Positions 19,351 to 60,368 of a stretch of DNA of 64,000 nucleotides are shown piece by piece; positions within the stretch are counted from its first letter, which is position 1, and each line of letters opens with the position of its first letter. Origin of the DNA: a virus. The stretch spans positions 52,942 through 116,941 of the IMG/VR virus record IMGVR_UViG_3300025151_000017; one strand, written 5' to 3'. The notes below the pieces were generated by a model. The model was not told the DNA's origin, ran no database searches, and saw only the letters and a list, made by a program, of their open reading frames with translations. The translations under genes and the position numbers were made by a program.

Positions 19351-20331
19351 ATGAGTAGTGGTAATAATGGTCCAGTGGACATTCCCCAAACTGATGAAGA
19401 ATGGGATAAATTAATCGCTGAAGGACAGCGAAATGCAGAAGAGTTAGAACAGCAAATGGGTCAAGACCCATATGTTTCTGGCTTGACAAAACCTACAGAA
19501 CCAAATCCTAGTGTAAACCCATACAGCTCAGATCCTAATGCACCTTTACCAGAAGGTGTAAAGAAAAAAGTTATGGGTATGATGATTCCTACAAGGGAGA
19601 AACAGCTTGAGGATTATGAGAAGTATAAGGAAGCAACTGCTAAAACTACTGACCAAGAAAAAGTAAGTTGGGCGATTGAACAAATCAATGCAAGTAGTTT
19701 TGAAAGCGACCTAGATGGTGCTCAAGAATGGCTAAAAGAAAACAAGCAGGAAATGGATGAGACAAAAAGACTTACCATTACTGAAGGACAAGCTGTTCAG
19801 GTACACTTTGTTAAACAAATATCTGAAGAAGAGTTTGAGAAAAAAATTATTGAAGGACTTGCTGAGATTAAACAGCTAGAAGTATCTGAGATTATGGAAG
19901 CTGGTGGTATGGATGCCCACCTCGTAAGAGATCTAGATATTGACTCACTTGATGCAATCGAACTGATTATGGATGCTGAGGATATGCTTGGTGCCCAGAT
20001 CGAAAATACTGAGATTATGTGGGTCAAAACTCTTAGAGATATCTTCGAAGTAATTAAGTATAAAATCGAGAATGATAATATGCCTTATCCTATCCCTGAT
20101 TTTGACGAAGAAGATATTATCTTTAGACCACAAACTAATAATGTTGATGGTGTAGAGGTACATCAAGGCAACTCTGCTTATAAACAATTTATGGCAGGTG
20201 CTGGGGAAAGGAAAGAAATCGAAGGAGATATCGATGCTTTCCTTGAAGAAGAGGAAGAAAGGGAACGCAAAATGCGTGAACTTTTAGATGAAGACGACGA
20301 TGACCTATCTGTAGGGCATAATAAGTCTTAA
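19351..20331 (+). CDS. acyl carrier protein domain in a larger acidic protein
   Basis: 326 aa. Residues about 161-240 form a standard ACP: LVRDLDIDSLDAIELIMDAE, with Ser199 in DSL as the phosphopantetheine site, then the helix III/IV pattern ending TLRDIFEVI. The flanks are unrelated: an N-terminal Pro/Glu-rich region and a very acidic C-terminus. A matching AcpS (50012), ketoacyl synthase (53547), FabI (48616) and MaoC dehydratase (27938) occur in the same window. Its position among virion genes is odd; the flanks might tether the carrier to a particle or scaffold. GGAGA precedes the ATG. Confidence 0.85.
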   Translation: MSSGNNGPVDIPQTDEEWDKLIAEGQRNAEELEQQMGQDPYVSGLTKPTEPNPSVNPYSSDPNAPLPEGVKKKVMGMMIPTREKQLEDYEKYKEATAKTTDQEKVSWAIEQINASSFESDLDGAQEWLKENKQEMDETKRLTITEGQAVQVHFVKQISEEEFEKKIIEGLAEIKQLEVSEIMEAGGMDAHLVRDLDIDSLDAIELIMDAEDMLGAQIENTEIMWVKTLRDIFEVIKYKIENDNMPYPIPDFDEEDIIFRPQTNNVDGVEVHQGNSAYKQFMAGAGERKEIEGDIDAFLEEEEERERKMRELLDEDDDDLSVGHNKS

Positions 20332-26930: not shown

Positions 26931-27938
26931 ATGATTTATGTGGATGCTAAATTTGCTAGTATGCTCGCACCTCGTGTGAGAAACTTTAAACAACAGAAAG
27001 ATTATCTGTGGAATTTCAGTTGCCCACTCTGTGGCGACTCCAAAAAGAATCAATCAAAAGCCAGAGGATATATTTATCGTAAAGAGAGTTCTCTCTTCTA
27101 CAAGTGCCACAACTGTCAAGCTGGTACAAGTCTCGGCAATCTACTAAAACAAGTTGACCAACGCATGTATAATGAGTACTCGCTAGAAAAGTTTGGCAGT
27201 ACTAATAATAAGCATGTGAATGACAAACCAGATCTAGAAATCTTCAAGACTGATACTATACCTGTGAAAAAATTAAATGCAAACCCAGTATCAGAACTTG
27301 CAGATAACCACCCAATAAAGCAGTTCTTGTTGCTTCGCCACATAAATCAAGAGCTTCATGAACATTTTTATTGGGTGGCACAGTTTAAACATTGGGTGAA
27401 TGAAAATATTGCAATGAACTTTCATAATATCAAAAAGGATGAGCCAAGACTTGTCATACCTTTTTATAATGAAGAGAAAGAATTAATTGCTATACAAGGT
27501 AGAGCATTCGGAAATGAAACACCTAAGTATTATACACTGAAAACAAATGAGAAGAACCATAAAGTATATGGTCTTGACCGAGTTGATGGTAGAAAATGGG
27601 TTTATGTGACAGAAGGTCCAATAGATTCTTTGTTCTTAGATAATGCTATCGCAGTTGCTGGTGCTGAGTTTCATTTACCACAAGTCAGACAGTTTAAAGA
27701 TAACTGTACTATCGTGTTTGATAACGAGCCAAGAAACCCTGCTCTCGTAAAACAGGTTGAGAAAATGATTAAACATGGTTTTCATGTTTGTTTATGGAAT
27801 GATAGTATAAAAGAAAAAGATATTAATGATATGATAATCGCTGGTAAAACTCCCCTGACAATACAAACATTAATAAGTCATAACACTGTACAGGGTGTAG
27901 ATGCCGAACTTAAATTTAATACATGGAGAAAATGCTAA
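26931..27938 (+). CDS. 61: DNA primase, T4 gp61-like
   Basis: Makes RNA primers at the fork with the gp41-like helicase. The N-terminal zinc finger uses Cys31, Cys34, Cys59, Cys62 (CPLCGDS and CHNC). A TOPRIM-like core has VTEGPIDSLF and IVFDNEPRNP. 335 aa is close to T4 gp61. The gene is predicted to be leaderless and ends on the ATG of the dehydratase gene. Confidence 0.9.
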   Translation: MIYVDAKFASMLAPRVRNFKQQKDYLWNFSCPLCGDSKKNQSKARGYIYRKESSLFYKCHNCQAGTSLGNLLKQVDQRMYNEYSLEKFGSTNNKHVNDKPDLEIFKTDTIPVKKLNANPVSELADNHPIKQFLLLRHINQELHEHFYWVAQFKHWVNENIAMNFHNIKKDEPRLVIPFYNEEKELIAIQGRAFGNETPKYYTLKTNEKNHKVYGLDRVDGRKWVYVTEGPIDSLFLDNAIAVAGAEFHLPQVRQFKDNCTIVFDNEPRNPALVKQVEKMIKHGFHVCLWNDSIKEKDINDMIIAGKTPLTIQTLISHNTVQGVDAELKFNTWRKC

Positions 27939-28462
27939 TGAGTGATGTACCAAAACTAGATCTTAGTGATGTGCCTTTTGATAGAGCCGACTTACTAAAA
28001 GACTATGTACATAATGTAGAGATTACTGAAGAACTAGTTAGAAACTTCTGTAAAATTATTCAAGACGATAACCCATTACACTTCGGAGATGAAGAAGGTA
28101 ATGTAATGCCAGGAGCATTGATGATATCATTGCTCTATTCTAATCCTGTTCCTGGATTTTTTATTAGAAATTTTAAAATTAATTTCTTAGCACCAATACA
28201 CTTTCCTACAACAGTAAGAGTATATCGTAAAGTATGGAAAGCTACTGACCGAAAAGCAGGTGAACTCGGAGATGGTATCTTCGCTATCAAAGATCTAAGC
28301 GATGGTATTATAAAAGCCAAAGGCAGTGGGCAAGTATTTAGACCGACCAAAAGATTAATGGAAACATTTGAACAAGGTGTTGACAGAAACTTTTTTAAAC
28401 AAAGCGACCCAAACTTTGAAAGGAAGCACTGGGTCAATCCCGAAGGGAAGGAGATAAAATGA
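27938..28462 (+). CDS. MaoC-like (R)-3-hydroxyacyl dehydratase (hotdog fold)
   Basis: 174 aa with the MaoC active-site pattern DDNPLHF (Asp44, His48), GALMISLL, and FKINFLAPIHFPTTVRVYRK. Catalyses reversible hydration/dehydration of 3-hydroxyacyl and trans-2-enoyl thioesters. ATG 27938 has GGAGAA 9 nt upstream and overlaps the primase stop. It would supply the dehydration step between the ketoacyl synthase (53547) and FabI (48616) of the phage acyl-elongation set, although it sits 20 kb away. Confidence 0.78.
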   Translation: MSDVPKLDLSDVPFDRADLLKDYVHNVEITEELVRNFCKIIQDDNPLHFGDEEGNVMPGALMISLLYSNPVPGFFIRNFKINFLAPIHFPTTVRVYRKVWKATDRKAGELGDGIFAIKDLSDGIIKAKGSGQVFRPTKRLMETFEQGVDRNFFKQSDPNFERKHWVNPEGKEIK

Positions 28463-43146: not shown

Positions 43147-43268
43147 TGAATGAATTAGAAAAATTAATAGAAAGCATAAAAGACTTCAAAGAGATTGAAG
43201 ACTTAATAAAAGCTAAAGTCTATACAGATAAACTAATTAACGAACTACAAGCAAAAGTAAACGACTAA
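43146..43268 (+). CDS. small coiled-coil protein, 40 aa
   Basis: ATG overlaps the curlin 2 stop (TAATG). Entirely heptad-like (MNELEKLIESIKDF...). Function unknown. Confidence 0.42.
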   Translation: MNELEKLIESIKDFKEIEDLIKAKVYTDKLINELQAKVND

Positions 43269-43276
43269 ATAATACT

Positions 43277-43708
43277 GTGGCTTATTCTAAAGAAGTCGTA
43301 GAAAGATTTGAAAGTGTTCTACGCAACCCAGCAAAACATTCGGTTGGTAAATTCAATCCGAAGGATGCTGATATAGCCACAGGTATGGTAGGAGCTCCAT
43401 CATGTGGTGATGTAATGAAACTCCAACTAAAACTTGACCAAGCTAACGATCCTGATAAAGCCAAGATATTAGATGTTAAGTTTAAAACTTATGGGTGTGG
43501 CTCTGCTATCGCATCCTCTACTATGTTCGTTGAAATGCTTACAGGTAAAACTATAGAAGAAGCAAAAAATATAACCAACGATGAAATAGCTGAAGCATTG
43601 GATTTACCACCAATTAAAATACACTGTTCAGTACTAGCAGAAGAAGGAATTAAAAAGGCGATACAAGATTGGTATGATAAAAAAAGTTCTAACACACTGG
43701 ACGAGTAG
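43277..43708 (+). CDS. iscU: IscU-type Fe-S cluster scaffold
   Basis: 143 aa, full length. Three cluster-binding Cys: GAPSCGD (Cys43 and Asp45), YGCGSA (Cys74) and KIHCSVLAEE (Cys117); FKTYGCGSAIASST is diagnostic. GTG start without ribosome binding site; CTAAATA ends 5 nt upstream. No IscS, IscA or chaperone genes are nearby, so it would depend on the host sulphur donor. Possible clients among phage proteins are not obvious. Confidence 0.9.
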   Translation: MAYSKEVVERFESVLRNPAKHSVGKFNPKDADIATGMVGAPSCGDVMKLQLKLDQANDPDKAKILDVKFKTYGCGSAIASSTMFVEMLTGKTIEEAKNITNDEIAEALDLPPIKIHCSVLAEEGIKKAIQDWYDKKSSNTLDE

Positions 43709-45503
43709 TTTATTCACACTTGCCATTCTGGCAATCATAGGATTCTCAAATCCTAACTTCAAAGAAATAATTAAATTAAAGTCTTTTGACTTTTTACTTG
43801 CATCTGAAGAGCAAAGTTTTTCAGAAGAGATAGTAATAGTTGAGATAGACGAAGCCACCATAGATAAGTATGGGCAGTATCCTTTCAGTCGTACTCAGTA
43901 TGCTTTTCTTATAGAAAAGTTAAGAGAAGCTGGAGCAGGTGTAATAGTATTCCCTATATTATTCTCAGAAGAAGATAGAGAGGATGGCGACTGGGTATTT
44001 AAAGAAGCATTAAAAGCAGGAACTGTTATAGCACAGTTAGGAACTAATGATATTAATAAGAATGGTGTGCCTAGAGGTGTTGCTAAAATAGGAGACCCAT
44101 TACCATACTTGTTTGAGTGGGGTGGGATGCTTGGTCCAATACCAGAGCTTGGTCAGTCAGCGAATGGTGTAGGTGTAGTTAATACTGCTCCCGAAATAGA
44201 TGGTGTGGTTCGTAGAGTTCCTTTACTTATGAGGATAGGTGAAGATGTATATCCTAGCATAGCCATAGAAGTTATTAGAGTTGCAGTAGGCGATCCATCT
44301 TATCAGGTAAAAGCAGGTGAGGGTGGCATACAAGCTATGAGAGTCCCAGGATTTGCTACTATACAAACTGATGCGAATGCTAGAATATGGTTGCGTCATG
44401 ATAAAATATATCCGACCATATCTATGGTAGATGAAATAGATGACTTCGTATTCGGTAAAACTGTAATCGTATCGCCAACTGCTGCTGGTATATCAAATAT
44501 CATAGCAACTCCTAGAGGAGAACAATACTCACATTATATTACTGCTTCAACCTTACAAACAGTTTTATCAGATGGACAAATAACTCGAGTTGATTATCTA
44601 CCATTACTTGAAATGGTTTCAGTAATATTGTTTGCACTTATAACTATTATCGCTGTTAGATTTTTACCATATGCTTGGCTCGCATTATACTTGGGTGTGG
44701 TAATATCTGCTGCAATCGCAAAAGCATACTTCGCATTTACTTGGTATGGTTGGTTAATAGATGTATCTTGGTTTATTATAACAATTATTATAATAGGATT
44801 CCACGCAACCTTTACTAGATTTATCCTAGAGTTTAATTTAAAACAACAAATAAGAAAACAGTTTGAGAGATATCTAGATCCTAGACAAGTTGCTATCCTA
44901 CAAAAAGATCCTAGTAAATTAAAACTAGGTGGCGAGAAAAGAGAGATGAGTTTCTTGTTTATGGACATAGTTGGCTTTACACCTATATCTGAGTATTTTA
45001 AAAACAAAGACGACCCAGAAGGATTAGTAGAATTAATTAATGATTACTTAAATAGAATGACTAAGATCGTCTTGGCTAATGGTGGTTGTGTAGATAAATA
45101 CATGGGCGATTGTATTATGGCTTTCTGGAATGCTCCACTTGATTGCGATAATCACGCAGAGTTAGCAGTCAAGACAAGTATTGAATGTGCTAAAGAAACT
45201 GAAAAGCTGAAGAAAGAATATAAAGAAGCAGGATTACCTGAGATTAATATTGGCTCAGGTGTAAACACTGGTACATGTATCGTGGGTAATATGGGAAGTG
45301 AAATGAGGTTTGACTATTCTGTTATCGGAGATGCTGTAAACCTTGCTGCCAGACTAGAAGCACAAACCAGAAACTATCCAAACTGTCATACACTTTACTC
45401 TCAATATACCAAAGATTGCCTAAATAGTATTGAGTCCATTGAATTAGATAAAATCAAAGTCAAGGGCAAAGAAGAATTAATAACAATATATGAACCCAAA
45501 TGA
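43674..45503 (+). CDS. CHASE2-domain adenylate cyclase (class III)
   Basis: 609 aa: N-terminal membrane helix (about 8-28), periplasmic CHASE2 sensor (about 30-295), three membrane helices (about 310-385), class III cyclase (about 415-605). Metal Asp in FMDIVGF (Asp431) and GDCIMAFW (Asp479); adenine-selecting Lys475 and Asp547; transition-state Asn556 and Arg560, so it should make cAMP and be active. Overlaps iscU by 35 nt. In bacteria CHASE2 cyclases often neighbour FecR-domain genes, and one is present here at 41337. Confidence 0.9.
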   Translation: MIKKVLTHWTSSLFTLAILAIIGFSNPNFKEIIKLKSFDFLLASEEQSFSEEIVIVEIDEATIDKYGQYPFSRTQYAFLIEKLREAGAGVIVFPILFSEEDREDGDWVFKEALKAGTVIAQLGTNDINKNGVPRGVAKIGDPLPYLFEWGGMLGPIPELGQSANGVGVVNTAPEIDGVVRRVPLLMRIGEDVYPSIAIEVIRVAVGDPSYQVKAGEGGIQAMRVPGFATIQTDANARIWLRHDKIYPTISMVDEIDDFVFGKTVIVSPTAAGISNIIATPRGEQYSHYITASTLQTVLSDGQITRVDYLPLLEMVSVILFALITIIAVRFLPYAWLALYLGVVISAAIAKAYFAFTWYGWLIDVSWFIITIIIIGFHATFTRFILEFNLKQQIRKQFERYLDPRQVAILQKDPSKLKLGGEKREMSFLFMDIVGFTPISEYFKNKDDPEGLVELINDYLNRMTKIVLANGGCVDKYMGDCIMAFWNAPLDCDNHAELAVKTSIECAKETEKLKKEYKEAGLPEINIGSGVNTGTCIVGNMGSEMRFDYSVIGDAVNLAARLEAQTRNYPNCHTLYSQYTKDCLNSIESIELDKIKVKGKEELITIYEPK

Positions 45504-47837: not shown

Positions 47838-48353
47838 ATGGCTGTGAAGTATATCGATAAGATTCTTCAGGATATAAATGACACTGGAGATGTTGAAAAA
47901 TATAAAGATGATGCACTAGTAAAAATTATTTTTGAAAACGCATTTAATCCTGCTAACAAGTGGATATTGCCAGAGGGCAACCCTCCTTATAAGCCAAGCG
48001 AGGAAGACGATATGGCACCCACTAATATGTATCTTGAAGCAAGACGAATAGGATATATTTTCAAGCGAGAAGATCTTACTCCTGTAAAAAGAGAAGGTTT
48101 ATTTATTGAGATGCTTGAAAGTGTATCACATGCAGAAGCAAAGATTCTTTTAGCTATCAAAGACCAAAGGCTGGATAAGATCTATCCCAAGATTACTCCA
48201 GAACTTGCCAGCAAGGTAGCTGATATTGATACAAAAGAAGCTGATAAGATGATTGCTGAAGCAAAGATTGCTGAAGAGAAAGCTAAAAAACCACACCAGA
48301 GTAAAACGCAAAAGCGAGATTCGTCTGGTAAATTTACTAAGAAGGCAAAGTAA
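47838..48353 (+). CDS. conserved marine-phage protein (DUF6433-like)
   Basis: 171 aa. WILPEGNPPYKP, LYLEARRIGYIF-like, and FIEMLESVSHAEAKILLAIKDQRL segments match a family widespread in T4-like marine phages (DUF6433 from memory). Lys-rich C-terminus. Adjacent to rnh, so perhaps replication-linked; function unknown. Confidence 0.65.
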   Translation: MAVKYIDKILQDINDTGDVEKYKDDALVKIIFENAFNPANKWILPEGNPPYKPSEEDDMAPTNMYLEARRIGYIFKREDLTPVKREGLFIEMLESVSHAEAKILLAIKDQRLDKIYPKITPELASKVADIDTKEADKMIAEAKIAEEKAKKPHQSKTQKRDSSGKFTKKAK

Positions 48354-48619
48354 TGACAAAACCACTAGAAGAAAGATTGGTGACTCTAAAAGATCTAGAG
48401 AATAATATTGAGTATGCTGGTGAAGTTCGTGTATGTACTGAAGATAGATTAGTTGTAGCATATAGAGATGCAACTACTGCTGAAAAGAAAGAGGTACAGT
48501 TTGATGTATATGATGTTCTAAATGACAAATGGTCTAGAGAAGATTGGGAGTGTACTTACCCAAACATAAATAAACTAAACGCAACTGATGTCACTGTTCG
48601 AGTAAATAATCATAGATGA
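48353..48619 (+). CDS. small hypothetical protein, 88 aa
   Basis: Beta-rich small protein (VRVCTEDRLVVAYRDA) whose start overlaps the previous stop and whose stop overlaps the FabI start. Unknown. Confidence 0.55.
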   Translation: MTKPLEERLVTLKDLENNIEYAGEVRVCTEDRLVVAYRDATTAEKKEVQFDVYDVLNDKWSREDWECTYPNINKLNATDVTVRVNNHR

Positions 48620-49377
48620 AAATAGCTGTCGTTATGGGAGTGGCGAATAATCGCTCCATCGCATGGGGTATCGCCAACAAGTTGATAGATGAAGGATACA
48701 CTTGTGTCTTTACCTATCCAAACGATTCCATAAAAAAGAAAATTACTAGACTATCACCTATGGCTCATGTCATCAAGTGTGATGTATCCGATCCTATGGA
48801 AGTTAGAAATGCTTTCATACAAATTAAACAACATTATCCTAAGATAGATTATGTTGTACATGCTATGAGTATGACAGACTTTCGTGAGTTAGATGGTAAG
48901 ATGAAGGATATAAGTAGAGAAAACTTTTTAGAAAGTTTAAATGTTGGTTGCTACTCACTGATTGATATAGTAAGAAACAGTTTACCTATGATGAATAAAG
49001 GTGGTGCATATTTGACACTTAGTTATGATGGCTCTCGTAGAGTTTACGACAACTATAATGTAATGGGTCTAGTAAAAGCTAGTTTAGAAAGTGCTACTAG
49101 ATACTTGGCTAGAGACTGTGCCGAAGTTGGTGTACGAATAAATTGTATATCGGCAGGAGTAATTAAAACATCAAGTGCTATGGCAGTAAAAGGTAGCAAG
49201 GGTATGTTAAAATGGGCAGAGGGAGTGAACCCAATGAAAAGAAATATCACTCTAGAAGATATAGCAGGGAGTGCTTATTACTTCCTATCTGATTTATCAT
49301 CAGGTGTGACAGGTGAAACACACTATGTAGATTGCGGATATAATATAATTGGAGCACCGAGTATAGATGACATCTAA
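48616..49377 (+). CDS. fabI: enoyl-[acyl carrier protein] reductase, FabI type
   Basis: NAD(P)H-dependent last step of acyl elongation. GVANNRSIAWGIA (residues 8-20) is the FabI cofactor motif; LTLSYDGSRRVYDNYNVMGLVKASLE contains Tyr137, Tyr147 and Lys154, matching the FabI Tyr-Tyr-Lys set; INCISAGVIKT and the GVTGETHYVDCGYNI end also fit. 253 aa, near full length. First gene of the lipid-synthesis stretch (FabI, AcpS, desaturase, KAS). Confidence 0.92.
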   Translation: MKIAVVMGVANNRSIAWGIANKLIDEGYTCVFTYPNDSIKKKITRLSPMAHVIKCDVSDPMEVRNAFIQIKQHYPKIDYVVHAMSMTDFRELDGKMKDISRENFLESLNVGCYSLIDIVRNSLPMMNKGGAYLTLSYDGSRRVYDNYNVMGLVKASLESATRYLARDCAEVGVRINCISAGVIKTSSAMAVKGSKGMLKWAEGVNPMKRNITLEDIAGSAYYFLSDLSSGVTGETHYVDCGYNIIGAPSIDDI

Positions 49378-49795
49378 AGTAATTAATCGCAAGTTTGCGA
49401 CAATGGACAATAAGAAAATTAAAATGCAACTCAATGGGTTTGTATTGAATACTCATATCGACCATGTTGATGAACTATTTGACGAAGGGATTGTAAGATA
49501 CTTTGTTAATCATGTACTATATCAACTTGATGTACAAAGACAGATACACTTCGAAGAACAACTAAAAAATCCTGATAACCGACCTATCCCAGATGGGCAT
49601 GCTAACCAAGCAAGTATTGAAGAGCATAAAGTATATTGTGAAGTGGTATTGCAAGATCCTTCTAAACCTGATTGGTGGGAAGCTGATACTCGAGGAATCG
49701 CTTGGACTGTACATGAAGCTGGTCAAATGAACTTAAAAGACATAGACAACATCAGGTATGATATATATAGTATAGAGGACAAAAAAAATGATTAA
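49367..49795 (+). CDS. hypothetical protein, 142 aa
   Basis: Soluble acidic protein with two Trp-rich segments (DWWEADTRGIAW); no recognised family. Starts inside the end of fabI and overlaps the next gene, so it is co-expressed with the lipid genes. Confidence 0.52.
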   Translation: MTSKVINRKFATMDNKKIKMQLNGFVLNTHIDHVDELFDEGIVRYFVNHVLYQLDVQRQIHFEEQLKNPDNRPIPDGHANQASIEEHKVYCEVVLQDPSKPDWWEADTRGIAWTVHEAGQMNLKDIDNIRYDIYSIEDKKND

Positions 49796-50015
49796 AAGAT
49801 ACAATAGGACTGAAAGATCTGAACTAATTGTAGAATCTGTAATTAAAAAATATGATGGTGAGATTGCTGAAGCAAATGCAAACTTACAGATTTATATTTC
49901 TAATTCAGTAGGTATCGGTGAACACGCAGAAGTGATAGCTGAAATCGATAAACTATTAGAGAAGATTGCATCTGCCGAAGAAAAAAAAGCAATGATAAAG
50001 AAATATACAGCATGA
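49788..50015 (+). CDS. small helical protein, 75 aa
   Basis: Two predicted helices rich in Glu/Lys/Ile. ATGA overlap with acpS. Unknown. Confidence 0.5.
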   Translation: MIKRYNRTERSELIVESVIKKYDGEIAEANANLQIYISNSVGIGEHAEVIAEIDKLLEKIASAEEKKAMIKKYTA

Positions 50016-50380
50016 CACCAAGAGCATCGATTATAGGACATGGTATTGATATGGTTCTCGAGTCTCGTTTTGAGAGACGAAGAGAGAAGTGGTCAGAAAC
50101 TATCCTGTCCCCAAAAGAGAAAGAGATTTATAATGGACTGCTAGATAGGCAGAAGTGTAATTATCTAGCAAAGGTATGGGTGTTAAAAGAAGCATTTGTG
50201 AAAGCAAGGCAACACCCAATCGTTGGTATGAAAGAAGCTAGAATGTTTTCTTATATCTCACCGAACTTAGTACCGAGTAAAGAGATAGCAGAAAAATTAA
50301 AAGGAGTAAACATACATTGTTCGCTGTCGGATTTCAAGGGTTGCGTAATTGGCTCAGTAATTTTAGAGAAAGCCATCTAA
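50012..50380 (+). CDS. acpS: holo-ACP synthase (4'-phosphopantetheinyl transferase), AcpS type
   Basis: 122 aa. GHGIDMVLESRFE (Asp13), ILSPKEKEIY and LAKVWVLKEAFVKA (Glu60) match AcpS, whose Asp and Glu bind the metal-CoA. It would attach phosphopantetheine to the Ser199 of the phage ACP at 19351 or to host ACP. ATGA overlap upstream; the desaturase start lies within its 3' end. Confidence 0.88.
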   Translation: MTPRASIIGHGIDMVLESRFERRREKWSETILSPKEKEIYNGLLDRQKCNYLAKVWVLKEAFVKARQHPIVGMKEARMFSYISPNLVPSKEIAEKLKGVNIHCSLSDFKGCVIGSVILEKAI

Positions 50381-51261
50381 CAACCTATAAAATTAATTTT
50401 CGTATCAGGTATTGGTGGTGGACCCAGCTTTGCCTGTTAGGAATAATTGTATTTGGTCGCTGGGACTTGATACCCTATGTTCTCGCATGGTGGTTTTTTG
50501 GAGCGATGGCTATAACAATATATGCTCATAGAGGATTATCACATAATAGTATAACAGTAAAATGGAAATGGCTCGAACACTTATTCTGCTCTCTTTGTAT
50601 AGTAAGCAACATCGGAAGTCCACTCGCTTGGGCAGTAATACACCGAATGCATCACGCATATCTAGACGAGGAGAGAGATCCACACAGTCCACATCAAATT
50701 GGTTTCTTAAGATCCTTAACCCATAGATGGGATGTACCTTTTGAAAATGTGCCACTAAGATTTACAAGAGGATTACTTAGAAACGAAACTGCTAGATGGT
50801 ATCACGATAATAGTTTTAAATCTATGTGTATTACTATCTTTGGTGCATACTTACTAATGTTATTATGGGGTATTATTGTAGAGACTTATACTAATGGAAT
50901 ATTCGTAATGCTTCCAGAACTATGGTATTATCTGACTAACTTCTATTGGTACGATGGTCCATATCTTTATATTCAAGAGTGGGGACTTAACTTTGCATGG
51001 GCAGCATTTGCTGGAGCAGGTCTTGGGCAATGGTCTATGGGTATTACTAACGCATGGCAACATAGTGATAAACGAGGTAAACAATACATTCGTAATGTTC
51101 CATGGTATCTAAGTTTTATAAACTGGGGAGAAGGCAGTCATGATTATCATCATACAAACCCTAGAGATTACAGTTTCGGAAAAGGATTAAACGATCCTAC
51201 ACAATATTTTATACTTTTTTTGGAAAAGATTGGAGCAGTGAGTATAAATAGAAATATATAA
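50317..51261 (+). CDS. membrane fatty-acid desaturase (delta-9 type)
   Basis: 314 aa with the three His boxes of acyl-CoA/acyl-lipid desaturases: HRGLSH (71-76), HRMHH (109-113) and HDYHH (275-279). Membrane helices lie at about 35-68, 90-108, 170-190 and 225-245. TTG 50317 has AAGGAG 10 nt upstream and overlaps acpS by 64 nt; a later TTG is possible. It introduces a double bond into acyl chains, complementing the elongation enzymes around it. Confidence 0.9.
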   Translation: MFAVGFQGLRNWLSNFRESHLTTYKINFRIRYWWWTQLCLLGIIVFGRWDLIPYVLAWWFFGAMAITIYAHRGLSHNSITVKWKWLEHLFCSLCIVSNIGSPLAWAVIHRMHHAYLDEERDPHSPHQIGFLRSLTHRWDVPFENVPLRFTRGLLRNETARWYHDNSFKSMCITIFGAYLLMLLWGIIVETYTNGIFVMLPELWYYLTNFYWYDGPYLYIQEWGLNFAWAAFAGAGLGQWSMGITNAWQHSDKRGKQYIRNVPWYLSFINWGEGSHDYHHTNPRDYSFGKGLNDPTQYFILFLEKIGAVSINRNI

Positions 51262-51419
51262 TGTTCCAGTTTACGAAGTGGATGATGGTACACAGAAGAG
51301 AGAGCAAGCAAGTACCCCAATCATCTGAGTTGGTATCTTTCGGTACTAAACTCCCCAATCCGATGGGTCACTTCGATGCAGTTTTGGTAGTTTCTGCTCA
51401 ACAAAAAACTACCACTTGA
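51261..51419 (+). CDS. possible small ORF, 52 aa, or structured leader
   Basis: ATG overlaps the desaturase end (TAATG) and encodes MFQFTKWMMVHRRES..., but the same DNA has several inverted repeats: TGGTAGTTT/AAACTACCA (51385-51414) and GAGTT/AACTC (51327-51353). It may be a structured RNA rather than a gene. TATAAATA occurs just before (51243-51250). The gap to the next gene is otherwise 185 nt. Confidence 0.3.
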   Translation: MFQFTKWMMVHRRESKQVPQSSELVSFGTKLPNPMGHFDAVLVVSAQQKTTT

Positions 51420-51446
51420 TTGTAAACTTCCAACTTGAAAGGAAAT

Positions 51447-51725
51447 ATGATGGAAGATATGGTTTTGGAAATGAATACTGATTTGGTTGATTATATTATT
51501 ACCCTTACATTCTCATTTCTATTTTTTGTAGTAGGTTGGGCAATGCCACGAGGTAATGCCCTGAAAAAAATTCAAGGTAAAATCTTTAAAAGGATTTACA
51601 ACTGGACAGGTGTGTTTATGGTGAAGCTACATAACTTCTTTGCGGATAGTGAGTTTCATCTAGAGCATGTCTGGCAGGATACTAAGGACTATGTCAGAAA
51701 GAAATATGGCTATAAGAAAAAATAA
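51447..51725 (+). CDS. small membrane protein, 92 aa
   Basis: AAAGGAAAT precedes ATG 51447 (MMEDMVLEM). One membrane helix (IITLTFSFLFFVVGWAM) and a basic, aromatic cytoplasmic tail. In a lipid-enzyme neighbourhood; unknown. Confidence 0.55.
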   Translation: MMEDMVLEMNTDLVDYIITLTFSFLFFVVGWAMPRGNALKKIQGKIFKRIYNWTGVFMVKLHNFFADSEFHLEHVWQDTKDYVRKKYGYKKK

Positions 51726-52516
51726 TGTTTAGACCACCTTATCATGTAGAGTTAAAAGATGTACCATTTCCTTTATCTAAGAAGGAACTGGAGAAACAGA
51801 TTGCACGATACGATAAGGAGCATGGTGATTGGGCAAAGCGAAAAGAAGAAACTATACCTGAGATATGGCATACTGATAAAACATCAGCAGCATATGGTGC
51901 GTATGGTTTTGTAGCAAATCTTTGGATAAATCATGAAAGATTTACACCTGAGTTTCAGCTATGGTTAGATAAACATTTAATAAAGCCAGCACTGGTCGGA
52001 ACTATATTCGTTTCCCCACCTGGATATTCACTGCGTCCACACATAGACCATACTGATTATAGTCATAGATATTATTGGCGACTTAACTTTCCTGTTGGTT
52101 TAGAAGACAACGAAGATAAGTGTATGACTTTCTGGGATCCTCGTGATTGTGTAATGGAAAGACGAAATAAAATTAACCACCCAAAGATGCCACATACAAA
52201 CTCAATGAGTTTGATTGAGTTTGATGATGCTACACGACCAAAGGTTAAAAAACATTTTGATACACAACTAGGTGCATGTTCAATTGTATGTGTAGGTGGA
52301 CCTGACTGTGCTCATAGTATGATATATGATGGCGAAAAAGAATCCTACACTATTTCTATAGCAATTGTAGATAAATTAACTAATCATAATTTTGAAAAAT
52401 GGGAAGCTATAGAAAAAAGATTAGGGCAATATTTTGTAAAAGAAGATAAACCATCTCCCATAAAAGCATGGGTGAAAGAGGATGGAGAATTTGGATGGAG
52501 TAGAGATGTTACATGA
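51725..52516 (+). CDS. 2OG-Fe(II) oxygenase-like protein, copy 1
   Basis: 263 aa. PHIDHTDYSHRYYWRLNFPV (His-x-Asp), and GPDCAHSMIYDGEKESYTISIAIV (second His, then a Ser/Thr where Arg is often found) indicate an oxygenase core like that of the adjacent 52506 gene. The two are diverged paralogues (shared order: PH-x-D, MTFWD/MTYWD, HS). They lie between the desaturase and the ketoacyl synthase, so an acyl or lipid substrate is possible but unproven. Confidence 0.62.
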   Translation: MFRPPYHVELKDVPFPLSKKELEKQIARYDKEHGDWAKRKEETIPEIWHTDKTSAAYGAYGFVANLWINHERFTPEFQLWLDKHLIKPALVGTIFVSPPGYSLRPHIDHTDYSHRYYWRLNFPVGLEDNEDKCMTFWDPRDCVMERRNKINHPKMPHTNSMSLIEFDDATRPKVKKHFDTQLGACSIVCVGGPDCAHSMIYDGEKESYTISIAIVDKLTNHNFEKWEAIEKRLGQYFVKEDKPSPIKAWVKEDGEFGWSRDVT

Positions 52517-53534
52517 ACCATATTACATGTCTTTGAAAGACACACTCGAACGACCTATTACTAATGAAGACTTACATGAGATATTAACACCACTAAGAGA
52601 GAATCTTAATCGTGGCAATATATGTGTTAGGAATAGTTATTTTCGTATTGAAATGATGAAGCAGTGGAGGGACATGATGCTTATGCCTTATGGTTGTAGT
52701 ATCTTTCGTGCCTTACCACATTATAGAATGTCACCACATGTTGATAGTCCGAGTCGTCCTAACTGGGGCAGAGTGACTTGGGCATATGAAGAAGTAAGTC
52801 CTGGCATATATGAACCATGGCAACCAGATGAAAACGAGTCATCTATTATGACTTACTGGGATGCTAGTGAAGCAGAGGAATGGACTTCTGATATGTGTAA
52901 TGTATCAGGCGATCCTGATAGAGATCTAACTTATGTAATCCCTAGAGAAAAAAGATTGCCAGGATGGGGAACTGGGTTGAAAGAAGAACTAAGTTTTCAA
53001 ATGTCATATCCTGGATTAATTAATGTAGGACAACCACATTCAGTATGGCATACTTCTGACAAACCTCGTATCGCTATATCTATTGAGTTTATGAATAGGA
53101 AAGGTGAGTTTGAAGGATTTGACAAACTGGCTAAAACCTTACAAAGATTTGGTTATGCTGATTTAGAAAGGGATGACCGAACTAAAAAATATGGCAGTAG
53201 AATGACGAATAGATTTACTTGCCTATATAATAAAGAGACAAATGAAGATGTTCCTGAAACTGTTTTTGATGAGAAAGCACTCAAAGAAAAAATAGAAAAA
53301 CATCTAGGTAGTAATGCTGCTGGTATGTCTTGGGAAGAAGCTGAAGAAGTTTATCTCAAGGAGAGATTACTCGAGAAGGGTGCACCTCCTGGGAAAATGT
53401 TAGAAGCACAAGGTCTAGATTATGACCAGTTCTTAGAAAAGAAAGGTGTCGGATTTAGATATGTTATAGGCAATGTTATGCAGAGCCTAGTGAACATCGA
53501 GGATGAATATAGGGCAAAATACCCTAACAAATAA
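52506..53534 (+). CDS. 2OG-Fe(II) oxygenase-like protein, copy 2
   Basis: 342 aa; ATG 52506 has GGAG 5 nt upstream and overlaps the previous stop by 11 nt. SPHVDSPSRPNWGRV (His-x-Asp), IMTYWDASEAE, and GQPHSVWHTSDKPRIAISIEF (His and Arg) give a complete oxygenase set, better kept than in copy 1. Extra C-terminal helical domain of about 110 residues. Confidence 0.65.
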   Translation: MLHEPYYMSLKDTLERPITNEDLHEILTPLRENLNRGNICVRNSYFRIEMMKQWRDMMLMPYGCSIFRALPHYRMSPHVDSPSRPNWGRVTWAYEEVSPGIYEPWQPDENESSIMTYWDASEAEEWTSDMCNVSGDPDRDLTYVIPREKRLPGWGTGLKEELSFQMSYPGLINVGQPHSVWHTSDKPRIAISIEFMNRKGEFEGFDKLAKTLQRFGYADLERDDRTKKYGSRMTNRFTCLYNKETNEDVPETVFDEKALKEKIEKHLGSNAAGMSWEEAEEVYLKERLLEKGAPPGKMLEAQGLDYDQFLEKKGVGFRYVIGNVMQSLVNIEDEYRAKYPNK

Positions 53535-53546
53535 ATGGAGTAGATT

Positions 53547-54770
53547 ATGAAACCTGTACATGTAGTTGGCTATGGTATGTCCGATGCTCTCGGCATAAAC
53601 CCCACCGAATGTTATCAAAAGATGCTAGATCCTAACGATTACTCTCGTGAGATCCCTGGCATGAAAAAACAATGCGAAGAGATATTTCACTTAATCATAC
53701 ATCGTGGTGCGATGCATGACGAAGATCGTATTATCATGCCTGATGGTTTTGATAAAAAGATGTGGCGAAGTATGACTAATGCTCAGAAGATGATGAGTAA
53801 TACCACAGAACAAGCTATGCAAATGGCAGGTATAGAACGCAGTCCTAATGTAGCAGTTCTTGCTAGTACAGTTTCAAATGATACTGAAGGAATCGATGTG
53901 TACTTTGAATATATTAAGTACATGAAAAGAGGTAATGCTCGTAGAGCAGTAAATAGGATTCCTGATATGGGATGTATGCATATTACATCTTACTATGGTT
54001 TCAAAGGTTTATCTACAGCTACTTTTGCATCTTGTGCTACAGGTATGGTCAATATTGATTATGCTATGCGACTTGTAGATGAATACGATTATGTTATTTG
54101 TACTGCTGGTGATTGTGCTAACTTCCCAATGGGCATTAAATACTTTGCTTGTTTAGGAGCATTAGCAAATTACTCTTTACCATTTGACGATAGGAGACAA
54201 GGTTTTCTTATGGGTGATGGTGGTGCTTGTATGATTTTACAATCAGAAGAAAAGATGAAAGAGTTTGGTAGTAAATCTTATGCTAAGTTGTATCAATGTG
54301 GTATGGCAAGTGACGCAGTAGATATGGTAAACCCAGAGGGAACTGGTACTCGTACTGCTATGCTTGATGCACTTGACCATTATGGTACTGGTGCTGTAGA
54401 TTATGTTTGTACTCATGGTACAAGTACAATAGCAGGAGATCCTATCGAGTATGAAGCAGTATCGGAAGTATTGCCAGGAACTAAAATGTGGGCACCGAAA
54501 AGTAAAATCGGTCACACACTTGCAGCATCTGGTATCCTAGAAGGTTGCTATGCTATTGAGAGTATGAGAAATGGTGTAGTACCACATATTCAAAACTTAA
54601 AAGAATGTTCACTTGATGTACATGGTACTTTAGTTCGAGAGAATGAAGAGTTTACTATGCATAACAGAAAGCGAAGTATGCTAAATAATTCATTCGGCTT
54701 TGGTGGTAAATGTATGTCACAAGTTATAGAAGTAGAATTGGAGCAACATGAAAGAGCAAACCCAGAATAA
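53547..54770 (+). CDS. beta-ketoacyl-ACP synthase (FabF/KAS-like)
   Basis: 407-aa thiolase-fold condensing enzyme with the full Cys-His-His triad: FASCATG (Cys163), CTHGTST-x2-GDP (His290) and KIGHTLAASG (His323), plus NSFGFGGK. This fits decarboxylating KAS I/II enzymes or polyketide KS. Catalyses chain elongation on ACP. Some N-terminal loops differ from bacterial FabF, so chain specificity is unclear. Overlaps the next small gene by 23 nt. Confidence 0.9.
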   Translation: MKPVHVVGYGMSDALGINPTECYQKMLDPNDYSREIPGMKKQCEEIFHLIIHRGAMHDEDRIIMPDGFDKKMWRSMTNAQKMMSNTTEQAMQMAGIERSPNVAVLASTVSNDTEGIDVYFEYIKYMKRGNARRAVNRIPDMGCMHITSYYGFKGLSTATFASCATGMVNIDYAMRLVDEYDYVICTAGDCANFPMGIKYFACLGALANYSLPFDDRRQGFLMGDGGACMILQSEEKMKEFGSKSYAKLYQCGMASDAVDMVNPEGTGTRTAMLDALDHYGTGAVDYVCTHGTSTIAGDPIEYEAVSEVLPGTKMWAPKSKIGHTLAASGILEGCYAIESMRNGVVPHIQNLKECSLDVHGTLVRENEEFTMHNRKRSMLNNSFGFGGKCMSQVIEVELEQHERANPE

Positions 54771-55496: not shown

Positions 55497-56010
55497 GAAT
55501 AAAAAAATATATCTAGATATGGACGGAGTTTTAGCTAACTTCGACGATTATTATTTTAGGAATGGCAGACATTCTTTTATCTATGAAGAGTTTAGACAAG
55601 AAGTCATGGATAATAAGTTGTTTGAAAATCTACCTAAGATGGTAAACATGGATGAGTTGGTCGACTCAGTAAGAGCGATCGCTGAAAAACATGATTATAA
55701 AATTGAAATCTTGTCAAGTGTTCATACACTATACGATGACCAATACACTGAGTCTTGCAGACAAAAAAGAAAGTGGTTAGTAAAAAATGGTATGGGCGAC
55801 TTACCAACTAACTTCGTAAAAGGTAGAACTGAAAAAGGAACTTATGGTTCTGATGGTGATATCTTAATCGATGACCAACTTACTTGTGTTCATTACTTTA
55901 ATGAAAATGGTGGTGTTGGTATTGGTCATAAAAATGTTATCGATACTCTTACATTACTTCAGAAGGTTATCGCTGACAGAAAATTACAAGAGGTGAGACT
56001 TGCTAGTTAA
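55495..56010 (+). CDS. 5'(3')-deoxyribonucleotidase-like HAD hydrolase
   Basis: 171 aa, NT5C-like HAD: motif I DMDGVLANFDD (Asp8, Asp10), motif II ILSSVH, Lys in FVKGRTEK, motif IV ILIDDQ. Would dephosphorylate deoxynucleoside monophosphates, salvaging or adjusting pools. Directly behind copy 2 of the palindromic promoter. Confidence 0.82.
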   Translation: MNKKIYLDMDGVLANFDDYYFRNGRHSFIYEEFRQEVMDNKLFENLPKMVNMDELVDSVRAIAEKHDYKIEILSSVHTLYDDQYTESCRQKRKWLVKNGMGDLPTNFVKGRTEKGTYGSDGDILIDDQLTCVHYFNENGGVGIGHKNVIDTLTLLQKVIADRKLQEVRLAS

Positions 56011-56545
56011 GAAAGATATGAATATGTTTAAGGGACAGTTCTCTCAGAGAATATCCCTTGCTGGTGCATACGCAAAGAATGCTCATGTCGGACAGAAAAG
56101 AAAGTACACAGGTGAGCCATACATCGTTCATCCTGCTGCTGTAGCAGAATTACTTCGACTAAATTATAAAGACTGCACTGAGGATATGTACATGGCAGCA
56201 CTTCTACATGATACTGTAGAAGATACTGACGCAACACATGAAGAGATAGCACGATTCTTTGGCGACAAAGTCAGCGAACTGGTTAAAGGTTTGACTGATG
56301 TATCAAAGCCAGAAGATGGGAATCGTGCTACTCGAAAAGCAATAGATCGTGACCATCTTGCTCAAGGTAGTAAAGAGGTGCAGACGATAAAGGTTTTTGA
56401 CTTGATACATAACACAGAATCTATTAGGGAACACGATCCTAAATTCTGGGAAGTATATAAGTTAGAAAAGCAAGATCTACTTAATGTGATGACTAAAGTA
56501 GATCCCGAAATTAAACAACTCGCATGGGAGAGTATAAAAGACTAA
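56000..56545 (+). CDS. HD-domain ppGpp hydrolase-like protein (MESH1/SpoT hydrolase type)
   Basis: 181 aa. RISLAGAYAKNAHVGQKRKYTGEPYIVHP, LLHDTVEDTDAT (HD motif with ED) and HDPKFWEVY match the RelA/SpoT hydrolase domain without the synthetase half. Likely degrades (p)ppGpp, countering the host stringent response; other nucleotides are possible. TTG start at 56000 has GAGGTGAG upstream; ATG 56018 is the alternative. Confidence 0.75.
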   Translation: MLVKKDMNMFKGQFSQRISLAGAYAKNAHVGQKRKYTGEPYIVHPAAVAELLRLNYKDCTEDMYMAALLHDTVEDTDATHEEIARFFGDKVSELVKGLTDVSKPEDGNRATRKAIDRDHLAQGSKEVQTIKVFDLIHNTESIREHDPKFWEVYKLEKQDLLNVMTKVDPEIKQLAWESIKD

Positions 56546-56550
56546 AATAA

Positions 56551-56988
56551 ATGAAAACAACTTTAATAGCAATCTTTGGTATTTGCCTTGGTACAACAGC
56601 CATAATTTCTATGGCATATGCTAATGCTGATGTCAAAGGTTATACTGATGTTCATGGTTGTTGGGGTGAATGTTATGAAGAACATGTTAAAAAGTTCGGT
56701 ACATTCAGCGAACAGCTTGAAGCAAAAAGGGTTGCAATGCAACAAGAAACACCAGCCGATAGAGGTGGTAAGTTATATGTAAATTGCAACATGTGTCATG
56801 GTATGAAAGGAGAAGGTGGTATCGGACCGAAACTATCTGGTTCTACCTCTATTGTAGCAATGCTAGAAGCATATAAAGCAGGAGAAACTAGAGGTGCTCA
56901 GTCAGCATTAATGTGGGGACAGGCAGCAAATCTATCTACTCAGGATATGGAAGATATCCAAGCATATATTTCATCGCTTGACATTTAA
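56551..56988 (+). CDS. exported c-type cytochrome (class I)
   Basis: 145 aa: signal peptide (cleavage near AYANA), then CNMCHG haem site (CxxCH), GIGPKLSG, and Met in ALMWGQAANLS as likely axial ligand; LSTQDMEDIQAYI is typical of small class I cytochromes. An extra N-terminal domain has CWGEC. It needs the host cytochrome c maturation system. Together with the oxidase at 58566 it suggests control of host electron transport. Confidence 0.88.
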   Translation: MKTTLIAIFGICLGTTAIISMAYANADVKGYTDVHGCWGECYEEHVKKFGTFSEQLEAKRVAMQQETPADRGGKLYVNCNMCHGMKGEGGIGPKLSGSTSIVAMLEAYKAGETRGAQSALMWGQAANLSTQDMEDIQAYISSLDI

Positions 56989-57942: not shown

Positions 57943-58582
57943 AATAATTAATCATTCAAAAGGATCGTACTCCGATCTATTAAACGAGATTGCATACTGT
58001 GCTAGAGTATCCAATCCTGGCAACCAACACAACGAAGAAACCAGTGAAAAATTACTTCGATATTTAATTAAACATAAACACTGGTCGCCTTTTGAAATGG
58101 TATCGGTGTGTTTAGAAATTAAAACTACTCGAGATATTGCTCGTCAGATATTAAGGCATAGAAGTTTCAGCTTTCAAGAATTTAGTCAAAGGTATGCCCA
58201 AGCTGATGTATTTATGCATAGAGAAGCAAGGAAGCAAGATTTAAAGAACAGACAAAACTCTACACAGTTTGAAGACCATGATATTATTAATTGGTTTCAT
58301 TATCAACAAGAACAAGTGTTAGGTAAAGTAAAAGATATTTACCAAACAGCACTTGATAAAGGTATCGCAAAAGAACAAGCGAGGGCGATTTTACCAGAGG
58401 GTCTAACTGAAAGTACCCTATATATGAATGGTACTTTAAGATCTTGGATGCATTATATAGATCTAAGAACTGCTAATGGTACACAAAGGGAACATATGGA
58501 AATAGCAGGTGAGTGTGCGAAAGCTATCGAACCAATCTTTCCAATGATTAAGGAATTTAACCATCTTGAGGGAACTGATTAA
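57932..58582 (+). CDS. thyX: flavin-dependent thymidylate synthase
   Basis: 216 aa. Converts dUMP to dTMP with FAD and folate. The ThyX motif RHRSFSFQEFSQR is at residues 75-87, with the LPEGLTESTLYMNGTLRSWMHYI substrate segment following. ATG 57932 is preferred to an upstream ATG at 57866 inside the previous gene. No dUMP/dCMP hydroxymethylase is present in the window, so any base change likely occurs after replication. Confidence 0.93.
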   Translation: MPAKIINHSKGSYSDLLNEIAYCARVSNPGNQHNEETSEKLLRYLIKHKHWSPFEMVSVCLEIKTTRDIARQILRHRSFSFQEFSQRYAQADVFMHREARKQDLKNRQNSTQFEDHDIINWFHYQQEQVLGKVKDIYQTALDKGIAKEQARAILPEGLTESTLYMNGTLRSWMHYIDLRTANGTQREHMEIAGECAKAIEPIFPMIKEFNHLEGTD

Positions 58583-59159
58583 AGATAAATTTGCTAAAAG
58601 CATGACGATGTTTTTTCGGTTTATAGCCGATACATTCTTCGCCAAGCGATATGGTCATAGGGCAGTAGTATTAGAAACTGTCGCAGCAGTGCCAGGAATG
58701 GTAGCTGGTGTATGGCTACATATGAAATCTCTTCGTAAGATGAAGACTGGTCTTGGTCCGAAGATTCGTGAGATGATGGAAGAAGCTGAAAACGAAAGAA
58801 TGCATCTAATGATTTTTATTGACATTGCCCAACCTACATGGCTTGAGCGATGGATAGTTTTATTTGCACAATTTATTTTTATAATTTTTTATTCACTACT
58901 TTACATCTTCTTTCCTAAAACTGCTCATCGTATGACGCATTACTTTGAAGAAGAAGCTGTAAAAAGTTATACGCAATATTTACATATGGTAGAGTCTGGG
59001 CAAGCAGATAATGTAGATGCACCACAGATAGCCATTGATTATTATGGTTTAGACCAAGATGCAAAACTAACTGATGTAATTAAGAAGGTAAGAGCAGATG
59101 AAGAAAAACACTCACTCGTCAATCTCCACTACTCGCACGAAGAGTACGAATTACAATAG
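58566..59159 (+). CDS. aox: alternative oxidase (AOX), diiron ubiquinol oxidase
   Basis: 197 aa. All six diiron ligands are present: LET (Glu37), NERMH (Glu77, His80), FEEEA (Glu129), RADEEKH (Glu179, His182). Two membrane-associated hydrophobic stretches (about 40-52, 95-117). It oxidises quinol with oxygen without proton pumping. TTG 58566 overlaps thyX; ATG 58602 is an alternative. Related plastoquinol oxidases are known in cyanophages; this copy is next to a cytochrome c gene instead of photosynthesis genes. Confidence 0.9.
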   Translation: MRELIKDKFAKSMTMFFRFIADTFFAKRYGHRAVVLETVAAVPGMVAGVWLHMKSLRKMKTGLGPKIREMMEEAENERMHLMIFIDIAQPTWLERWIVLFAQFIFIIFYSLLYIFFPKTAHRMTHYFEEEAVKSYTQYLHMVESGQADNVDAPQIAIDYYGLDQDAKLTDVIKKVRADEEKHSLVNLHYSHEEYELQ

Positions 59160-59279: not shown

Positions 59280-60368
59280 ATGAAAATTAGAAAAGTAGAT
59301 AGAACACCATATAATGTGGAACTATTTGATGGAGAGTATCCTAAAGATAGATCTAAACTTGCGGAAGATGTGGTTGAGATATTTGAAACTCCACTAACTG
59401 GTTCATATAACTGGGACTATACAGTACAGGATAATCGCATTCGCAAACTGTATGAACTTGGTAAAAAACTGAACTGGAATGTAGAAGTCGATGTCGACTG
59501 GTCACCTGAGTATAAAGGTATGACCGAAGAAGAGTTTGAAATGGAAGATACTCAGTGGGATAAGCATCCAATATATAAAGGTTGGGATGCTAAAAAACGC
59601 ATGGAGTTTCTACACGATAATAATTCATGGGCACTATCCCAGTTTTTACATGGTGAGCAAGGTGCATTGTTAGTTGCTAGTCAGCTATGTTCCTGTGCTC
59701 CAACATTCAACGCAAAGTTGTATGCAGCAAGTCAGACCTTTGACGAAGCAAGACATGTAGAAGCATTTAACAAATACATACAAACAAGAATTAAAAAGTC
59801 ATGGCCAATCGGTAATGGCTTGAAAGGTTTACTTGATAAAATACTTACCGACCCAAGATGGGATCTTAAGTTTATCGGTATGCAAGTTATCATAGAAGGT
59901 CTTGCTCTGGCAGCATTCCAGGCATCCAAAGAGAGCAGTAGAGACCCAGTCTATAAAGAAATGATAGAATATATCATAAGAGATGAAGCAAGGCATGTGA
60001 CCTTTGGAATTAACTATTTACACGAGTATGTACAAACTTTGTCAGAAGAAGAACAACTAGATCGTGCTAAGTTTGCTCTTGAAGCATGTACTGTATCAAG
60101 ACATAGACTAAGACCTTTTGAAGTGTGGCGAAGATATGATTTAGATCTAGTAAAGACAGAAGAATATACCAAAGAGAATTTATTTCAGACACAGTTTCAA
60201 GATGTATTGTTCAGTAGAATAATGCCAAACTTAAAAAAGATCGGACTACTTCCTGACGAAGTTATTCCTGGATATGAAAAGTTGGGTGTATTAAAATACA
60301 CTGAAGCAGAAAGTGATTACGAATTAAACTGGGAAGAACTCAGTAAACCATTAAAGGAAGCTGTATAA
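59280..60368 (+). CDS. ferritin-like diiron oxidase/oxygenase
   Basis: 362 aa. Ligand pattern: LHGEQGALLVASQ (Glu), TFDEARHVEAF (Glu, His), MQVIIEGLALAAF (Glu), IIRDEARHVTFG (Glu, His), giving a complete carboxylate-bridged diiron site on a four-helix bundle. Resembles R2-like oxidases rather than NrdB proper (separate at 34448); acyl-ACP desaturase and AurF-type N-oxygenases share the layout. In this genome an acyl substrate is an attractive but untested idea. Confidence 0.7.
   Translation: MKIRKVDRTPYNVELFDGEYPKDRSKLAEDVVEIFETPLTGSYNWDYTVQDNRIRKLYELGKKLNWNVEVDVDWSPEYKGMTEEEFEMEDTQWDKHPIYKGWDAKKRMEFLHDNNSWALSQFLHGEQGALLVASQLCSCAPTFNAKLYAASQTFDEARHVEAFNKYIQTRIKKSWPIGNGLKGLLDKILTDPRWDLKFIGMQVIIEGLALAAFQASKESSRDPVYKEMIEYIIRDEARHVTFGINYLHEYVQTLSEEEQLDRAKFALEACTVSRHRLRPFEVWRRYDLDLVKTEEYTKENLFQTQFQDVLFSRIMPNLKKIGLLPDEVIPGYEKLGVLKYTEAESDYELNWEELSKPLKEAV

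What the first reader, a model, noticed from the sequence alone, without database searches (positions are those of the whole stretch)
48616..54770. Phage-encoded fatty-acid/polyketide elongation set
FabI, AcpS, a desaturase and a ketoacyl-ACP synthase with intact catalytic residues are packed into 6 kb of phage genome; a MaoC dehydratase (27938) and an ACP domain (19351) are elsewhere in the window. Only ketoreductase and malonyl transferase are missing. I know of no phage with this full set. It could redirect host acyl chains into a modified lipid, an acylated product or membrane needed for virion or lysis.
Basis: partly seen in the sequence, partly recalled or inferred. Interest (0 to 1): 0.9.

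Follow-up and report, generated by a model that had tools for sequence, protein, structure and literature searches.

The report
Phage carries own fatty-acid elongation set
A T4-like marine phage and its close relatives carry most of a bacterial fatty-acid-building line, including a private acyl carrier and the enzyme predicted to switch it on, so the virus may make its own acyl chains; only two of these genes had been reported before, in a freshwater sister group.

Summary
FabI, AcpS, a membrane desaturase and a FabF-type condensing enzyme lie in one 6-kb, same-strand block of a T4-like phage, catalytic motifs intact. The two outlying parts also check out: an ACP domain (Pfam hit over cut-off, DSL serine) and a MaoC/(R)-hydratase-like protein (no Pfam hit, but D-x-N-P-x-H motif and hot-dog fold match). 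The set is not chance or misassembly: it recurs in collinear order in relatives from independent metagenomes, under purifying selection. The sister group, which matches published freshwater SAR11 'fonsimyophages', has only the condensing enzyme and desaturase, as already reported (PMC7029224). ACP, AcpS, FabI and MaoC are present together in the first group and absent together in the second. No ketoreductase or malonyl transferase was found. Best reading: a phage-owned carrier (ACP plus its own AcpS) feeding a partial type II elongation cycle, with the missing steps borrowed from the host. The product is unknown; 'polyketide' is unsupported. New variant of a known kind (phage lipid genes).

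The parts
48616..49377 (+). FabI-type enoyl-ACP reductase (SDR), Y137/Y147/K154
   Evidence: PF13561 E 2.4e-71; best NCBIfam hits all FabI; solved FabI structures E to 3.7e-68; dN/dS 0.12-0.14
50012..50380 (+). AcpS-type 4'-phosphopantetheinyl transferase
   Evidence: PF01648 over cut-off; solved AcpS structures; D13, K59, E60; dN/dS 0.04-0.13
50317..51261 (+). membrane fatty-acid desaturase, stearoyl-CoA type, three His boxes; TTG start overlaps acpS by 64 nt
   Evidence: PF00487 over cut-off; acyl-CoA desaturase 4zyo; conserved TTG start and ribosome site
51725..52516 (+). OxyA, conserved protein of the block with H106-x-D108...H197; 2OG/Fe oxygenase-like by motif only
   Evidence: no Pfam/NCBIfam/PHROG hit; motif invariant in four phages
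52482..53534 (+). OxyB, conserved protein of the block with H86-x-D88...H186 and R196; 2OG/Fe oxygenase-like by motif only
   Evidence: no family hit; motif invariant in four phages; model too poor to use
53547..54770 (+). FabF-type beta-ketoacyl-ACP synthase, C163/H290/K318/H323/F383
   Evidence: PF00109 and PF02801; best model FabF; aligns with FabF 6okg; triad invariant in 7 phages
27923..28462 (+). MaoC/(R)-hydratase-like hot-dog protein, D48-x-N-P-x-H53
   Evidence: hot-dog order of elements; Foldseek to PhaJ1, PhaJ and HTD2, E 1.4e-5 to 4e-5; dN/dS 0.05-0.08; no Pfam hit
19351..20331 (+). 326-aa protein with an ACP domain (Ser199 in DIDSLD; conserved core about residues 140-260)
   Evidence: PF00550 over cut-off; ACP structures; core 4-5 changes in 121 residues against 55-56 in 200 in the flanks
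48353..48619 (+). small gene of unknown function, overlaps fabI by 4 nt
   Evidence: conserved in relatives
49367..49795 (+). gene of unknown function between fabI and acpS, also in the sister group
49788..50015 (+). small phage gene (phrog_1811), overlaps acpS by 4 nt
51435..51725 (+). small gene, predicted membrane segment near the N terminus, 173 nt after the desaturase
   Evidence: conserved in relatives; membrane segment by eye

Best explanation
A partial type II fatty-acid elongation and modification module that runs on a phage-owned carrier. Phage AcpS puts a phosphopantetheine arm on Ser199 of the phage ACP domain. Phage KAS extends an acyl chain by two carbons with malonyl units loaded by the host's FabD; host FabG reduces the ketone; the phage MaoC-like hydratase removes water and phage FabI reduces the double bond. 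The chain, or a host lipid, is then desaturated by the phage membrane desaturase, and OxyA/OxyB may oxidise it further. Most likely outcome: altered or extra acyl chains in the membrane of the infected cell. Shown: the genes, motifs, conservation and co-inheritance. Inferred: catalysis, pairing of AcpS with this ACP, use of host FabG and FabD, and the product.
For: Family and structure-level identities. Catalytic residues intact and invariant. ACP, AcpS, FabI and MaoC are all present in the large records of the first group and all absent from the sister group's records up to 145 kb, while KAS and desaturase occur in both. The ACP core is far more conserved than its flanks. dN/dS about 0.04-0.24 for the enzymes. 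Overlapping same-strand genes suggest co-expression. No KR or MAT in the phage, which the host must supply.
Against: ACP and MaoC lie about 29 kb and 20 kb from the block. The ACP is a domain in a 326-aa protein encoded near head-protein genes, unlike a free FAS ACP. AcpS aligns to Pfam only over its first 79 residues and scores below the AcpS equivalog cut-off. The sister group keeps KAS and desaturase without ACP or AcpS, so KAS may work with host ACP. No acyltransferase outlet was found (PF01553 absent); thioesterases were not searched. No biochemical data.
Confidence: 0.5

Rival explanations
1. Host-pathway booster: the phage enzymes act on host acyl-ACP inside the host's own FAS II and relieve bottlenecks (FabI, KAS, dehydratase, ACP charging) while the desaturase raises membrane fluidity. 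The phage ACP merely adds to the pool.
For: KAS and desaturase persist without phage ACP or AcpS in the sister group. Phage desaturases are generally read this way (PMC7300359). Classic auxiliary metabolic gene logic.
Against: Does not by itself explain why four further parts, including a dedicated AcpS and an unusual fused ACP, are present and absent together.
Confidence: 0.25
2. Virion or assembly role: the ACP-domain protein is a head or assembly protein that AcpS decorates with phosphopantetheine, perhaps acylated to hold membrane or protein partners; the enzymes make the acyl group it carries.
For: The ACP gene is three genes upstream of a head protein (phrog_613), beside other large phage proteins. 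The flanks are long and acidic. ACP Ser and core are almost invariant.
Against: Adjacency only; no virion proteomics; the protein has no match in any named phage record, so its place in particles is unknown.
Confidence: 0.12
3. Specialised-metabolite pathway: KAS, FabI, hydratase, desaturase and oxygenase-like proteins build a small acylated or polyketide-like compound, for signalling or excluding competitors.
For: Oxygenase-like genes lie within the block and also between desaturase and KAS in the sister group.
Against: KAS is closest to FabF; FabI implies full reduction; no acyltransferase or other tailoring set identified; oxygenase genes are common in these phages in other contexts.
Confidence: 0.08
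4. Host chromosome DNA wrongly joined to phage, or transient cargo.
For: FabI is related to alphaproteobacterial FabI, up to 47% identity.
Against: Same gene order between phage RNase H and MazG genes in contigs from independent metagenomes; phage FabIs form one clade, support 100/100, on a long stem of 1.9 changes per site; 30 contigs from 25 metagenomes carry at least one part.
Confidence: 0.01

Closest known systems
Freshwater pelagimyophages (fonsimyophages, group PMP-D; Zaragoza-Solas et al. 2020, PMC7029224)
   Same: fabF and stearoyl-CoA desaturase reported there; the sister-group records here have KAS (57%) and desaturase (38-44%) at the same place beside RNase H, carry an AdoMet decarboxylase (speH) and lack CsgG, matching that description; TerL 66% identical.
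   Different: The window's group adds FabI, AcpS, ACP and MaoC, has OxyA/OxyB homologues not detected in the sister group, and has curli genes.
Rhodobacteraceae prophages with fabG-acpP-fabF (PMC8224337)
   Same: Phage-borne ACP and FabF.
   Different: Prophages with the bacterial operon order and a ketoreductase; AcpS and FabI are not among the genes named in the passages read. Here: T4-like phage, no ketoreductase, fused ACP, own AcpS.
Virus-encoded fatty-acid desaturases (PMC7300359; cyanophage desaturases of Roitman et al. 2018, cited there)
   Same: Stearoyl-CoA-type membrane desaturase with His boxes.
   Different: Those reports centre on the desaturase; here it sits with elongation genes. 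Only one named phage record, Pelagibacter phage Mosig, has a related desaturase (27%).
Methylophilales phage Melnitz (PMC9004378) and Pelagibacter phages HTVC008M and Mosig
   Same: T4-like Kyanoviridae backbone; curli operon in Melnitz and HTVC008M.
   Different: No KAS in any of the three; no AcpS, ACP or FabI-like SDR in Melnitz.
Bacterial type II fatty-acid synthase
   Same: Enzyme families and catalytic residues of FabI, FabF, AcpS and ACP.
   Different: Incomplete (no FabG or FabD found), MaoC-like dehydratase candidate, ACP as a domain of a larger protein.

Membership tests
FabI enoyl-ACP reductase | SDR fold with the FabI Tyr-Tyr-Lys active site and FabI-level profile match | tested here: met
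   Y137/Y147/K154 align with the FabI active site; all best models FabI though below equivalog cut-offs
KAS II (FabF) | Cys-His-His triad with Lys, gatekeeper Phe, both ketoacyl synthase domains | tested here: met
   best model FabF, 177 bits, below the equivalog cut-off of 494
AcpS phosphopantetheinyl transferase | PF01648 over cut-off; Mg-binding Asp and Glu and the KEA motif | tested here: met
   motif residues. Below NCBIfam AcpS cut-off (40.3 against 59.8)
Acyl carrier protein domain | DSL phosphopantetheine serine and PF00550 over cut-off | tested here: met
   24.1 bits over 20.8
Acyl carrier protein domain | Carries phosphopantetheine in vivo | not testable with these tools
   needs mass spectrometry
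MaoC / (R)-specific hydratase | Pfam MaoC profile match | tested here: not met
   no PF01575 hit even at E 10
MaoC / (R)-specific hydratase | Hot-dog fold with catalytic Asp/His in D-x-N-P-x-H | tested here: inconclusive
   motif present and invariant; Foldseek E 1.4e-5 to PhaJ1 but pLDDT 52, TM about 0.4-0.65; called MaoC-like, not filed as a Pfam MaoC member
Membrane fatty-acid desaturase | Three His boxes and PF00487 over cut-off | tested here: met
Complete type II FAS | Ketoreductase FabG and malonyl transferase FabD encoded | tested here: not met
   one SDR only, the FabI; no PF00698; records may be incomplete
2OG/Fe(II) oxygenase (OxyA, OxyB) | H-x-D...H metal triad in a double-stranded beta-helix | tested here: inconclusive
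   triad invariant; no profile match; OxyB model pLDDT 36
Polyketide synthase system | KS with PKS-type partners (AT, chain-length factor, cyclase) | tested here: not met
   KAS nearest FabF; no acyltransferase domain; chain-length factor and cyclase not searched

The most novel reading that the evidence does not exclude
A lytic phage lineage runs a private acyl-carrier line: its own ACP, its own activating enzyme and its own elongation enzymes, kept apart from the host's fatty-acid synthesis, to make an acyl product for the virus (membrane, virion or acylated protein).
Probability: 0.3. Interest if true: 0.82.

Novelty: new variant of a known kind. Interest (0 to 1): 0.62.

Why it matters
Phage lipid genes known so far are mostly single desaturases or a piece of the host operon. 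A T4-like lineage related to SAR11 phages that holds a carrier, its activating enzyme and several chain-building or chain-modifying enzymes under strong purifying selection suggests that making or remodelling acyl chains is part of its infection cycle. It gives a concrete, testable set for asking what a lytic marine phage needs lipids for, and whether viruses can bypass host control of fatty-acid synthesis by using a separate carrier.

Tried and rejected
Misassembly or host contamination: rejected. KAS and FabI hits in named 'phage' records: identities 25-41%, many in short unannotated or prophage-derived records with bacterial-looking neighbours (for example MaAM05 fabI sits among mtgA, fliM and ompA; Acinetobacter MD-2021a), so not used as evidence of phage relatives. 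KAS donor search in bacterial genomes: patterns came from phage-conserved stretches and found nothing. MaoC by profile: no Pfam, PHROG or PDB-sequence hit, so fold comparison was used. OxyB structure: too poor to search. Recent acquisition from a present host: not supported, since phage FabIs sit on a long stem, though the nearest bacterial sequences are mainly alphaproteobacterial. Not searched: FabA/FabZ, FabH and thioesterase profiles.
Full report
What is there. The window is bases 52942-116941 of a 116,941-base IMG/VR virus record. It is a T4-like phage: gp41-type helicase 58% identical to Methylophilales phage Melnitz, terminase about 50% identical to Kyanoviridae, ribonucleotide reductase, RNase H and curli genes in the order seen in Melnitz and HTVC008M. 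All protein genes of the block lie on the + strand, most overlapping by 1-64 bases with two gaps of 12 and 173 bases. NCBIfam names FabI and FabF as best models, with scores below the equivalog cut-offs, as expected for divergent phage copies. Alignments to solved structures place the catalytic residues of FabI, FabF and AcpS correctly, and the desaturase aligns with stearoyl-CoA desaturases.

The outlying parts. The ACP domain lies at about residues 140-260 of a 326-residue protein (19351-20331), with PF00550 over cut-off and serine 199 in DIDSLD. Between phages, this core has 4-5 amino-acid changes in 121 positions while the flanks have 55-56 in 200; synonymous changes are frequent in both. 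The MaoC-like protein (27923-28462) has no Pfam, PHROG or PDB-sequence match. It has the hydratase motif D-x-N-P-x-H, and a low-confidence AlphaFold model with the hot-dog order of elements matches (R)-hydratases best (Foldseek E 1.4e-5). I call it MaoC-like.

More than chance, and phage-borne. Related contigs carry the block in the same order between the phage's RNase H and MazG genes. Scans with KAS, AcpS, ACP, MaoC and FabI returned 30 contigs of the close group from 25 metagenomes holding at least one part; two contigs carry all five of these genes and further ones four, the rest being fragments. dN/dS against relatives is 0.04-0.14 for FabI, AcpS, KAS and MaoC and 0.06-0.24 for the desaturase. 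Phage FabIs form one clade (100/100) on a stem of 1.9 changes per site; the closest bacterial sequences, up to 47% identical, are mainly alphaproteobacterial. This points to an old acquisition.

A sister group with a smaller set. Eight further contigs have KAS at 57% and desaturase at 38-44% identity at the same place, with other oxygenase-like genes between them. The two large records tested carry an AdoMet decarboxylase and lack CsgG, the traits given for freshwater SAR11 myophages, in which 'fabF, stearoyl-CoA desaturase' and a 2OGFeDO protein were reported (PMC7029224). Their terminase groups with the window's phage (66% identity, 100/100). In the sister-group records, up to 144.8 kb, I found no ACP, AcpS, FabI-like SDR or MaoC. 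So ACP, AcpS, FabI and MaoC are gained or lost together, against a KAS-desaturase core common to both. The host is not shown; kinship to SAR11 phages makes a SAR11-like alphaproteobacterium the best guess. That the close group is marine is inferred from this kinship and from my reading of the sample numbers, not shown by a tool.

What is missing. The only SDR is FabI; no PF00698 malonyl/acyl transferase and no PF01553 acyltransferase. The records may be incomplete, so absence is provisional.

Mechanism. The most economical reading is a partial elongation cycle on a phage-owned carrier activated by the phage's AcpS, with host FabG and FabD filling the gaps, plus desaturation of chains or lipids. 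The co-inheritance of ACP with AcpS, FabI and MaoC is the main support. It is circumstantial: KAS in the sister group works without a phage ACP, the ACP is fused and encoded among structural-type genes near a head protein, and no outlet enzyme was identified. OxyA and OxyB look like 2OG/Fe oxygenases by their invariant H-x-D...H motif only; no profile or usable model confirms it. A polyketide is not supported.

Novelty. Phage desaturases, a phage fabF-desaturase pair and prophage fabG-acpP-fabF are published (PMC7300359, PMC7029224, PMC8224337). In 50,697 named phage records there is no match to the phage AcpS or ACP protein, and the papers searched describe, as far as titles, abstracts and the passages read show, no phage with a carrier, its activating enzyme and elongation enzymes together. 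The paper library holds open-licence papers only. I therefore rate it a new variant of a known kind.

Noticed in passing
58566-59159: Alternative oxidase (AOX, PF01786, E 2.7e-66), near a cytochrome c gene at 56551-56988 (PF00034): possible redirection of host respiration.
   Followed up: no
59280-60368: AurF-like diiron protein (PF11583 just below cut-off, weak hits to RNR small chain and aldehyde decarbonylase), conserved at 85% in relatives.
   Followed up: no
8358-9641: Myo-inositol-1-phosphate synthase-like gene (PF01658; phrog_33138): another possible link to lipid head groups.
   Followed up: no
39254-45503: Curli-type operon (CsgG, curlin repeats, CHASE2/adenylate cyclase) as in Melnitz and HTVC008M; already published for pelagimyophages.
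   Followed up: partly
5085-6386: TET/JBP-type oxygenase (PF12851, E 9.6e-20), possibly phage DNA base modification.
   Followed up: no
56000-56545: HD_4 domain protein of the kind found in RelA/SpoT homologues, possible alarmone hydrolase.
   Followed up: no
15113-18982: 1289-aa protein with an N-terminal cytidyltransferase domain (phrog_3041), two genes upstream of the ACP gene.
   Followed up: no
L017:11730-20837: In the sister group the region after KAS holds several Asp/Asn-hydroxylase-type genes and a class-III aminotransferase: a dense oxygenase cluster of unknown purpose.
   Followed up: no
L070:7593-8537: A siphophage record (MW202545) has a lone KAS-like gene among structural genes.
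   Followed up: no
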